Assembly (NCBI RefSeq): GCF_003568865.1
Contig: NZ_CP031115.1
Location: 1,178,001 to 1,242,000, forward strand
Reading direction: 5' to 3'
Length of the DNA: 64,000 nucleotides
Source of the DNA: Rubrobacter indicoceani
Lineage (GTDB): Bacteria > Actinomycetota > Rubrobacteria > Rubrobacterales > Rubrobacteraceae
This document shows, piece by piece, positions 53,611-55,930 of this stretch. The notes beneath the pieces are model-generated. The model was not told the DNA's origin and made no database searches. It saw only the letters and a list, made by a program, of their open reading frames with translations. The stretch's first letter is position 1, and each line of letters starts with the position of its first letter. The translations under genes were made by a program, and so were the position numbers.

Positions 53611-55032
53611 TCAAGGGGAGAAAAGCAGCGCGACCCCGGCCAGGATAAAGATAGAGATCGCGACCGGCGGCAGCGCCCGACGGATAAGCTCGCCCTCGCT
53701 TCCGGTGAGGCCGACCGCCGCCGCAGCGAGGACTATCCGCTGCGGGGCGAGCATGCTCGCGTGGCTTCCGCTGACGTTCTGAACGGCGGCTATCAACCCG
53801 GCCCCATCCCCGAGGTTTCGCGCCGCCTCGGACTGAAACGGCATGAACAGGGCGTTCGAGGCGGCGTTCGAGCCGGTGAGCGCACCCCCGACGCCGCCGA
53901 CAAGCGAGGCCGCCACCGGGTAAAACGCCCCCGACTTGGCGGCGAACCCGGCCAGCACCGCCGCACCACCGCATACCGCGACCACCTGACCCGCCGCAAC
54001 AAAGACAACGATGGAACCCGCCGTCGGGAGCCACTGCGCGACGGTCTTCCTGAGGGCCGCCTCGACATCGTCCGGCCTGAGGCCGAGCAACGCCACCGCA
54101 AAAGCCGAAGTCGCGAAAAGCGGCAACCCCGGACCGGATATGACCCCTGCGATTCGCTCGGGCAACGCGCCGGAGAGCGTCGAGACCGCGATGATCCCGG
54201 CCACTAGAAACCCGTACGGCACCACGGCCCGCACCGGAACCCCGACCTCCCGGAGCCGGACCCGGCGGCGCAAAAGGAAAACCCCGAGCGCGACCGCTCC
54301 TCCGACCGCCCCCGAAAGCTCCGGCGCAACGAACAGGCTCGTTGCAAGCGTCCCAAACCCCGCCGCAAGCCCGAGCATCAGCGCCTCGACGCCGTGCCTG
54401 CGAAGCGCCTCCAGACCACCCGCCAGAAGAAGCGACGCACCGGCGTAGACGGGGAAGAGCGGCAGGTTCAAAAGCGCGCTCAGGTCCGAGAGCCGGGCAA
54501 AGGTCAGCCCCGACAGATCGGCCCCGATCACCGTCCCGACCCCGAGCGCGCCCCACGGAACGGCGCACTGGCTCCACATCGCAAGAACCGCCGCCTTGAT
54601 CGGAGAAAACCCCGCAGCGAGCAGGATCGGGGCGCATATAACCACCGCCACCCCGAAGCCCGTCACCGACTCGAAGAACGCCCCCGCTCCGACCACGACC
54701 GCCACCGCGAGGATAGCCCGCTCCGGCTCGACCGAGCCCAGAAACCGCGATACCGCCCCGACCTGACCATCCCCCGGACCGGACGCGAGCAGCCGATAGA
54801 GAAGCAGCCCCCCGAACAGTACGAACACAACGTCCCACGATGTCCCGACCGAACCGAGAACCGCCGGTAAAACCCCCGAACCAGAGAGCGGCGGCCAGAG
54901 GACCGCCCCTAGAATCGCCGCCGAAAGCGCGGCCAGACCCGTCCGAAACGCCGACCATCCGAAGCCGAGTAGCGCCACCCCCGCTACGAGAAAAGGACTC
55001 CCCGCCACCAGAACCCCCGCCAATTCCACCAT
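53611..55032 (-). CDS. L-lactate permease family transporter (LctP)
   Basis: The 473-residue membrane protein has about thirteen helices and the LctP hallmarks AGAFFESVTGFGVAVV, MWSQCAVPWGALGVGT, LTGSNAASNALFMPFQ and VSGSHASMLAPQRIVLAAA. It probably takes up L-lactate, glycolate or a related hydroxyacid. The ATG is only 20 bases from the divergent XRE-cupin gene. No ribosome site exists; TATAGT ends six bases before the ATG, so the mRNA is likely leaderless. Its frame-shifted GC-rich shadow frame of similar length is not a gene. Confidence 0.88.
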   Translation of the reverse strand: MVELAGVLVAGSPFLVAGVALLGFGWSAFRTGLAALSAAILGAVLWPPLSGSGVLPAVLGSVGTSWDVVFVLFGGLLLYRLLASGPGDGQVGAVSRFLGSVEPERAILAVAVVVGAGAFFESVTGFGVAVVICAPILLAAGFSPIKAAVLAMWSQCAVPWGALGVGTVIGADLSGLTFARLSDLSALLNLPLFPVYAGASLLLAGGLEALRRHGVEALMLGLAAGFGTLATSLFVAPELSGAVGGAVALGVFLLRRRVRLREVGVPVRAVVPYGFLVAGIIAVSTLSGALPERIAGVISGPGLPLFATSAFAVALLGLRPDDVEAALRKTVAQWLPTAGSIVVFVAAGQVVAVCGGAAVLAGFAAKSGAFYPVAASLVGGVGGALTGSNAASNALFMPFQSEAARNLGDGAGLIAAVQNVSGSHASMLAPQRIVLAAAAVGLTGSEGELIRRALPPVAISIFILAGVALLFSP

Positions 55033-55052
55033 GATAGAACTATATCTACTAA
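55033..55052. promoter_or_regulatory. Compact divergent leaderless promoter for lctP and its XRE regulator
   Basis: The 20-base gap holds, on the minus strand, TATAGT (55044-55039) six bases from the lctP ATG and, on the plus strand, TATATC (55041-55046) six bases from the regulator ATG. The two hexamers share 55041-55044. The -35 regions must lie in the opposite coding sequence. TAGA/TCTA arms around the core may be part of an operator. Confidence 0.5.
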
Positions 55053-55607
55053 ATGAGAGAGAAAGGAACAGTTGCCTCGGAGACGCTCGGGAGCCGGGTT
55101 CGGGCCCTGCGGCGGGAGCGGGGGATGACGCTCGAGGGCTTCTCCGAGGCGGCGGGGGTGAGTCGGGCCATGATCTCGAAGGTCGAGCGCGGGGAGAAAA
55201 GCCCGACCGTCTCCGTCGCCGGGCGGCTGGCGGCGGGGCTCGGGGTGAGCGTCGGGCGGCTTCTCGGCGAGGAGGAGCCGGAGCGTCGTCGCGGGGTTGT
55301 GTTGCGTCGGGAGGGTCAGATGGTCATGCGCGACCCGGAGAGCGGCTTCGAGCGACGGTTGCTGTCCGGGGCCGTGGAGTTTGTCGGAGCCGCGCTGCCG
55401 GAGGGGTCTACGACGGGGGAGTTTCCGGCGCGCCGGACGGGGGTGGTCGGATACCTCGCGGTCGAGAGAGGCCGGTTGCTGGCCCTCCTCGGGGAGGAAG
55501 AGCACCTGCTGGAGAGAGGCGATGCCCTGACCTTCAAGGCCGACGTCCCGCACGAGTTCGGGAACATTGGGGTGGGGGAGGCCGTTTACTATCTGGTGAT
55601 CCCTTAA
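55053..55607 (+). CDS. XRE-family regulator with C-terminal cupin domain
   Basis: The 184-residue protein has an N-terminal HTH (LGSRVRALRRERGMTLEGFSEAAGVSRAMISKVERGEKSP in pieces) and a C-terminal cupin (about 105-184: EFPARRTGVVGYLAVERGRL, LERGDALTFKADVPHEFGN). XRE-cupin proteins sense small ligands and often repress or activate adjacent permease genes. Its location 20 bases from lctP and the shared promoter make LctP its likely target. It may also autoregulate. Confidence 0.9.
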   Translation: MREKGTVASETLGSRVRALRRERGMTLEGFSEAAGVSRAMISKVERGEKSPTVSVAGRLAAGLGVSVGRLLGEEEPERRRGVVLRREGQMVMRDPESGFERRLLSGAVEFVGAALPEGSTTGEFPARRTGVVGYLAVERGRLLALLGEEEHLLERGDALTFKADVPHEFGNIGVGEAVYYLVIP

Positions 55608-55639: not shown

Positions 55640-55930
55640 TCAGTCTTCGGGACTCTGGCGGGGGTCGAGAAGCCTGCGGTACTGGGTCAGGTAGAAGTCC
55701 AGCCAGCCGGAGCGTCCGTCCCCGGTAAGTTGCGGGGGGCTGGCATCGTTTGCGGACGGCGTGCCGACTTCGGGGAGGCTTACGATGTCGAGGAGAGTGC
55801 GGAGTACCGGACCGGCCAGGACCCCGTCGCAGGCCTCGCAGCGCATCGAGAGCCGTCCGAAAGGGTAGAGGTCTCCACGCTCACAGGACGGGCAGGCGAC
55901 GGGCGGCTGGCTGTTGCGGTTTTCCTGCAT
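55640..55930 (-). CDS. Small zinc-ribbon-like protein
   Basis: The 96-residue protein begins with a four-cysteine ribbon, CPSCERGDLYPFGRLSMRCEAC, CxxC pairs 15-20 residues apart, likely one zinc ion. The rest is helical with LRTLLDIVSLPE and a closing FYLTQYRRLLDPR. I do not know a function. It is 81 bases downstream of the nicotinate phosphoribosyltransferase and could be in the same transcript. Confidence 0.65.
   Translation of the reverse strand: MQENRNSQPPVACPSCERGDLYPFGRLSMRCEACDGVLAGPVLRTLLDIVSLPEVGTPSANDASPPQLTGDGRSGWLDFYLTQYRRLLDPRQSPED

What the first reader, a model, noticed from the sequence alone, without database searches (positions are those of the whole stretch)
55033..55052. 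Twenty-base divergent promoter in which two leaderless -10 elements overlap
lctP (minus) and the XRE-cupin gene (plus) are separated by 20 bases. TATAGT faces lctP and TATATC faces the regulator; each ends six bases from its ATG, and they share four bases (55041-55044). If both are real, polymerase cannot occupy both at once, and the -35 regions must lie in the opposite genes. This would make a very compact switch for a transporter and its likely regulator, with a regulator site inside coding DNA.
Basis: partly seen in the sequence, partly recalled or inferred. Interest (0 to 1): 0.6.

Follow-up and report, generated by a model that had tools for sequence, protein, structure and literature searches.

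The report
Shared operator between permease and regulator

Summary
The letters and coordinates are right, but in this sequence alone the two hexamers are no better than chance: 22% of shuffled gaps do as well. They are kept in 0 of 26 non-redundant relatives in the family (Rubrobacteraceae). What is kept is a dyad filling the gap, TGRTAGAA-N4-TTCTACCA, plus a third half-site, TTCTACCA, over the first codons of lctP. Arm columns are 90% identical between genomes, against 45% at comparable silent sites. The dyad follows the XRE-cupin gene rather than lctP. It is kept in two genomes that have the regulator but no lctP, and is absent in the one genome with lctP but no regulator. The best reading is a single-target operator of the XRE-cupin protein, overlapping the promoter(s) of both genes. 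In 25 of 27 genomes the left half-site is TAGAAT or a TANNNT variant, matching this lineage's -10 consensus and pointing at the regulator gene. In the window it has decayed to TAGAAC, and TATATC also lacks the T that leaderless -10s need here. Overlapping leaderless divergent promoters do occur elsewhere in this genome. Binding and transcription starts are inferred, not shown.

The parts
53611..55032 (-). lctP-like permease, 473 aa (Pfam PF02652, Lactate_perm)
   Evidence: E=1.1e-45; TIGR00795 lctP 143.6 bits, below its cut-off of 341, so the substrate is uncertain; family orthologs
55053..55607 (+). XRE-cupin regulator, 184 aa (HTH_3 at residues 16-68, Cupin_2 at 134-182)
   Evidence: orthologs at 54-67% identity across the family; recognition-helix region SRAM.SK.ERGEK.PT identical in 25 of 25 relatives
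55032..55051 (.). conserved dyad (operator) TGATAGAA-CTAT-ATCTACTA; family consensus TGRTAGAA-TNNY-TTCTACCA
55032..55039 (+). left half-site R (TGATAGAA); its first base is the complement of the A of the lctP start codon
   Evidence: T, A and A at columns 0, 1, 3 invariant, G at column 2 in 26 of 27
55044..55051 (-). right half-site F2 (reads ATCTACTA on the + strand here; TTCTACCA in relatives)
   Evidence: columns 10-12 invariant in 27 of 27
55024..55031 (-). third half-site F1 (reads TTCCACCA on the + strand here; TTCTACCA in relatives) over lctP codons 1-3, 20 bp from F2
   Evidence: kept where no lctP starts there (G001, G033) and where lctP has ATA at the usual ATG (L017, L035)
55035..55040 (+). 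slot of the conserved -10-like hexamer facing the regulator: TAGAAT or a TANNNT variant in 25 of 27 genomes, decayed to TAGAAC in the window
   Evidence: the genome's own leaderless -10 consensus is (tGn)TAGAAT
55039..55044 (-). TATAGT, -10-like hexamer at -12 of lctP; at this place only in the window genome
   Evidence: TANNNT peak at -12 (81 against about 19); not kept in relatives
55041..55046 (+).

Best explanation
The gap is a single-target operator for the adjacent XRE-cupin regulator. A regulator dimer binds TGRTAGAA-N4-TTCTACCA, and a third half-site over the first lctP codons, 20 bp away and so on about the same DNA face, gives a place for a second dimer or extended binding. The left half-site doubles as the -10 element (TAGAAT, with an upstream TGn) of the regulator's own promoter in nearly all relatives. 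Bound protein would therefore block RNA polymerase from its own gene and from lctP: shared repression plus autorepression, probably relieved when the cupin domain binds a metabolite. Both mRNAs would be leaderless or carry a leader of a few bases. Shown: conservation of the dyad, its fixed spacing, its linkage to the regulator gene, and the match to the lineage's -10 consensus. Inferred: that the XRE-cupin protein is the binder, that it represses, where transcription starts, and what the ligand is.
For: The dyad has N4 spacing in 27 of 27 anchored non-redundant loci and in two further genomes with partial regulator genes (G012, G037), and N3 spacing in G033. Arm columns are 90% identical pairwise, F1 is 85%, N4 is 51%, silent sites are 45%, and the adjacent lctP start is 42%. 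Linkage: G001 and G033 have the regulator but no lctP and keep R, F2 and F1; G015 has lctP but no regulator ortholog and has no dyad with two or fewer substitutions in 4.4 kb. The dyad is kept where the usual regulator ATG is lost (L015, L020, L023, L028, L036) and where lctP has ATA at the usual ATG (L009, L011, L017, L035). Asymmetry: column 5 is T in 25 of 27 while its mirror column 8 is A in only 2 of 27, and hexamer position 5 varies more than position 6, as in a -10 element. The genome's leaderless -10 consensus is TAGAAT with TGn enriched. There is no excess of second sites in any genome, as expected for a local regulator. Pseudomonas XRE-cupin factors are local inhibitors with palindromic sites, proposed to occlude promoters, some autoregulated (PMC7901475).
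Against: No binding or expression data. The window's own site is among the most degenerate of the set (changes at columns 5, 9 and 15, and in F1), and its arms alone are not beyond chance (49% of shuffles). No TANNNT is conserved for lctP at a leaderless position in the relatives, so the lctP promoter is not located. Because half-sites resemble -10 elements, some of the conservation could come from polymerase rather than from a regulator.
Confidence: 0.72

Rival explanations
1. The dyad is not a regulator site but a bidirectional promoter: two extended -10 elements (TGGTAGAAN) facing each other, conserved because RNA polymerase uses both.
For: TGnTAGAAT is the genome's own -10 consensus. Bidirectional promoters with opposed start sites 7-25 bp apart are common in bacteria (PMC12825309, PMC10268837). 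Three other short divergent gaps in this genome carry TANNNT on both strands.
Against: The lctP-facing copy lacks T6 in 25 of 27 genomes yet is as conserved as the other arm, and T6 is required here. F1 is a third copy with no gene to serve. Inner positions, such as G at hexamer position 3, are conserved far beyond the roughly 45% seen in this genome's -10s. G001 and G033 keep the right arm without lctP.
Confidence: 0.15
2. One reading: two overlapping leaderless -10s, TATAGT and TATATC, give mutually exclusive polymerase binding in this genome.
For: TATAGT fits the leaderless peak at -12. The predicted start distance, 21 bp, falls within the 7-25 bp range used to define bidirectional promoters (PMC10268837). 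Similar overlapping pairs exist elsewhere in the genome.
Against: TATATC lacks T6 and TANNNC is not enriched. The pair is reached in 22% of shuffles. Neither hexamer is in any relative, including the same-genus relative L033, which has no TANNNT at a start-compatible position facing either gene.
Confidence: 0.1
3. The conservation is a by-product of coding and start-site constraint: lctP codons 1-3, start codons, and AT-rich initiation regions.
For: F1 overlaps lctP codons 1-3; starts tend to be AT-rich.
Against: The dyad is kept where lctP is absent (G001, G033) or has ATA at the usual ATG, and where the regulator ATG is lost. GTA is 10% of Val codons and 12 of 113 Val codon-2 cases in this genome, yet most relatives carry GTAGA over codons 2-3, which only 3 of 2239 genes of the window genome do. 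The non-coding right arm is equally conserved.
Confidence: 0.03

Closest known systems
XRE-cupin neighbour-gene repressors of Pseudomonas (ErfA, PsdR, PauR family; PMC7901475)
   Same: Same domain architecture; palindromic site beside the regulator's own gene; transporter or enzyme neighbour; apparently a single local target.
   Different: Here the operator fills a 20-bp divergent gap, overlaps the neighbour's start codon and the regulator's -10, and carries a third half-site in coding DNA. No binding or expression evidence here.
Bacterial bidirectional promoters with shared -10 elements, e.g. acrR/acrAB, where the autorepressor AcrR represses both RNAs (PMC12825309)
   Same: Divergent regulator and transporter genes with polymerase sites too close for simultaneous use; local repressor over both.
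   Different: The conserved elements here are two opposed TAGAA half-sites, only one of which has T6; starts would be leaderless or nearly so; not experimentally mapped.
TA-led leaderless genes of Actinobacteria (TANNNT about 12 bp upstream of the start; PMC3160421)
   Same: This genome shows the same TANNNT peak at -13/-12, and lctP carries such a hexamer.
   Different: The regulator gene does not carry TANNNT in the window, and in relatives its hexamer sits at -18, implying a leader of about 6 bases.

Membership tests
XRE-cupin transcription regulators | N-terminal XRE/HTH_3 DNA-binding domain | tested here: met
   PF01381, E=2e-14, residues 16-68
XRE-cupin transcription regulators | C-terminal cupin domain | tested here: met
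   PF07883, 30.9 bits against cut-off 27.2, residues 134-182
XRE-cupin transcription regulators | Palindromic binding site next to own gene and neighbours | tested here: inconclusive
   A conserved dyad is there by comparison across the family; that this protein binds it was not tested
XRE-cupin transcription regulators | Inhibition of neighbouring gene(s) | not testable with these tools
   Needs expression data in a regulator deletion
Bidirectional promoter | Two start sites 7-25 bp apart on opposite strands | not testable with these tools
Bidirectional promoter | -11A and -7T present for both directions in the shared -10 region | tested here: not met
   The + hexamer TATATC ends in C; the lctP-facing TAGAAR copy in relatives lacks T6 in 25 of 27
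Leaderless (TA-led) genes | TANNNT starting about 12-13 bases upstream of the start, for lctP | tested here: met
   TATAGT at -12, in the window only
Leaderless (TA-led) genes | Same feature for the XRE-cupin gene | tested here: not met
   No TANNNT facing the regulator in the searched upstream stretch of the window
LctP lactate permease, TIGR00795 | Score above the curated cut-off | tested here: not met
   143.6 bits against 341.15; member of PF02652, substrate open

The most novel reading that the evidence does not exclude
A regulator half-site has evolved to be identical to the lineage's extended -10 consensus (TGnTAGAAT), so that one operator is both the core promoter of the regulator and, through three half-sites reaching over the neighbour's start codon, a block on a divergent transporter, all within about 28 bp and with almost no untranslated leader on either side. 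In the window genome the promoter side has shifted by a few bases (TAGAAT lost, TATAGT gained for lctP) while the operator is kept.
Probability: 0.3. Interest if true: 0.5.

Novelty: new member of a known kind. Interest (0 to 1): 0.33.

Why it matters
It gives a specific, testable operator for a regulator-transporter module kept across a whole bacterial family, and shows how small such a switch can be: start codons, -10 element and operator share about 28 bp. It also shows that -10 hexamers picked from one sequence can be decayed or shifted parts of a conserved operator. The TANNNT peak and the other short divergent gaps suggest that leaderless, overlapping divergent promoters are frequent in very short gaps of this lineage, for which the library searches found no leaderless-promoter study.

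Tried and rejected
Sigma-70-type promoter scan of 54900-55250: none found. -35 elements: none visible at 16-18 bp upstream of either hexamer; L033 has a TTGACA, but at 13 bp from TAGAAA. lctP promoter in relatives: no TANNNT at a conserved leaderless position; TATTCT at -9 in about half is too close to the ATG, and TA[TC]CAT at -4 overlaps the ATG itself. Regulon search for further operator copies: counts do not exceed reversed-pattern controls. Motif near distant XRE-cupin homologs outside the family: not found, and no lctP beside them. Class-level search: only the same 39 genomes are held. The genome-wide counts rest on my own simple gene caller, which chooses starts without upstream signals but is not curated. 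Two literature queries failed on syntax; searches for Rubrobacter leaderless or promoter studies, and for XRE-cupin with lactate permease, gave nothing on point.

Full report
WHAT IS THERE. The coordinates and letters of the finding are correct. lctP starts at 55032 on the minus strand, the XRE-cupin gene at 55053 on the plus strand, and the 20 bases between them read GATAGAACTATATCTACTAA. The window lies in a 3.08-Mb genome of Rubrobacteraceae, about 64% GC. The regulator has HTH_3 and Cupin_2 domains; its closest solved relative by sequence is 1y9q, an HTH_3-family regulator. The permease belongs to PF02652 but scores well below the curated cut-off of the lctP model TIGR00795, so 'lactate' is a family name, not a shown substrate.

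IS THE HEXAMER PAIR MORE THAN CHANCE? Not from this sequence alone. Shuffling the gap gives an equally good pair of -10-like hexamers in 21.8% of trials, and an equally long dyad in 49%. A promoter scan found no -35 plus -10 combination. Comparison is needed.

LEADERLESS PROMOTERS IN THIS GENOME. I called 2240 genes on 2.46 Mb of the main contig without using upstream signals. TANNNT shows a sharp peak starting at -13 and -12 (65 and 81 genes, background about 19). The consensus is TAGAAT, with a TG two bases before it enriched. So leaderless transcription is very likely real here, in line with the TA-led genes described for Actinobacteria (PMC3160421). TATAGT in front of lctP fits this class. 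TATATC in front of the regulator does not: it lacks T6, and TANNNC is not enriched at those positions (13 and 13 against 17.9).

WHAT IS CONSERVED. Thirty-one of 39 family genomes have a regulator match at E <= 1e-25; all but one or two of these are clear orthologs. In all 27 non-redundant loci that could be anchored, the gap holds TAGA-type arms with fixed spacing: TGRTAGAA-N4-TTCTACCA (alignment A1). G012 and G037, with partial regulator genes at contig ends, also have it, and G033 has it with N3. A third half-site, TTCTACCA, lies exactly 20 bp from the right arm, over lctP codons 1-3. Pairwise identity is 90% in the arms, 85% in the third half-site, 51% in the N4 spacer, 45% at comparable silent sites of the regulator gene, and 42% in the adjacent lctP stretch. 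In window coordinates the half-sites are 55024-55031 (F1), 55032-55039 (R) and 55044-55051 (F2). The window's copy is among the most degenerate of the set.

WHICH GENE DOES THE SITE BELONG TO? Three natural experiments point to the regulator. G001 and G033 have the regulator but no lctP, and both keep F1, R and F2. G015 has lctP without a regulator ortholog, and no dyad with two or fewer substitutions occurs in the 4.4 kb around it. The site is also kept where the usual lctP ATG reads ATA (L009, L011, L017, L035) and where the usual regulator ATG is lost (L015, L020, L023, L028, L036). This rules out coding or start-codon constraint as the main cause. The stretch around the recognition helix (SRAM.SK.ERGEK.PT) is identical in all 25 relatives compared, as expected if they read the same site. 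No genome has an excess of further sites, so the regulator looks local.

OPERATOR OR PROMOTER? Probably both at once. The left arm is TAGAAT, or a TANNNT variant, in 25 of 27 genomes, nearly always preceded by TGn. This is the lineage's own extended -10 consensus, pointing at the regulator gene with a predicted leader of about 6 bases. The T at the sixth position is conserved on this side only; its mirror position is not. The fifth position varies more than the sixth, which is the signature of a -10 element. The right arm and the third half-site lack that T and yet are just as conserved, which polymerase alone would not explain. The two exceptions on the left arm are exactly the window genome and its same-genus relative, so the promoter for the regulator seems to have changed in this genus. 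The lctP promoter in relatives remains unlocated.

MECHANISM. Most likely the XRE-cupin dimer binds the dyad and, with the third half-site, covers the region over the regulator's -10 and the lctP start, repressing both. This matches XRE-cupin factors of Pseudomonas, which inhibit neighbouring genes, bind palindromes, are proposed to occlude promoters, and are in part autoregulated (PMC7901475). It also resembles acrR/acrAB, where the autorepressor AcrR represses both RNAs of a bidirectional promoter (PMC12825309). Binding, repression and ligand are inferences.

Overlapping leaderless divergent promoters do seem to exist in this genome. Of eight divergent pairs with a gap of 11-30 bases, three others have TANNNT at -12 to -15 on both strands (758384-758400, 1243763-1243783 and 2239063-2239082 of contig C1). 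In the first two the hexamers overlap by five bases. The 758384 pair implies start sites 18 bp apart, the commonest spacing reported for bidirectional promoters (PMC12825309).

VERDICT. A real, strongly conserved regulatory element, but of a known kind. The stated pair of overlapping -10s is half plausible (lctP side) and half unsupported (regulator side).

Noticed in passing
G000:C1:758384-758400 (L190:18384-18400): 17-bp gap GTTGGTATATTAGCAGC between divergent genes (a UbiA-like prenyltransferase and a multi-span membrane protein, possibly carotenoid enzymes; read by eye). TANNNT sits at -12 on both strands, overlapping by five bases, with implied start sites 18 bp apart.
   Followed up: partly
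G000:C1:1243763-1243783, 1.8 kb beyond the window's end: 21-bp gap GCATGAAATATTATCAAATTA between a CDF-type metal transporter and an ArsR-like regulator (read by eye); overlapping TANNNT at -13 on both strands.
   Followed up: partly
G000:C1:2239063-2239082 (L261:19063-19082): 20-bp gap CCCGATATAATCCTATTTTC between a methyltransferase-like gene and an ABC-F-like ATPase gene (read by eye); TANNNT at -15 on both strands.
   Followed up: partly
G000 main contig, 2.46 Mb examined: Sharp TANNNT peak at -13/-12 upstream of called starts, consensus (tGn)TAGAAT, indicating many leaderless genes in a Rubrobacteraceae genome.
   Followed up: yes
L022 (G024:C1:1922469-1922502): Two perfect dyads in tandem, 20 bp apart: TAGAAAAGCTTCTA inside the lctP start region and TAGAATCTCTTCTA in the gap, so the third half-site is completed to a second operator here.
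   Followed up: no
L009, L011, L017, L035, L127: The usual lctP ATG reads ATA in these genomes; in L017 and L035 an ATG lies 9 bases further into the gene.
   Followed up: partly
window 55643-55930, minus strand: 96-aa ORF with CPSC...CEAC zinc-ribbon-like spacing, just downstream of the regulator gene; no Pfam or NCBIfam match at E <= 0.001.
   Followed up: no
G016, G023, G025, G027, G029, G038: In several relatives an lctP fragment lies within a few bases of a contig end, so lctP/regulator linkage could not be read there.
   Followed up: no
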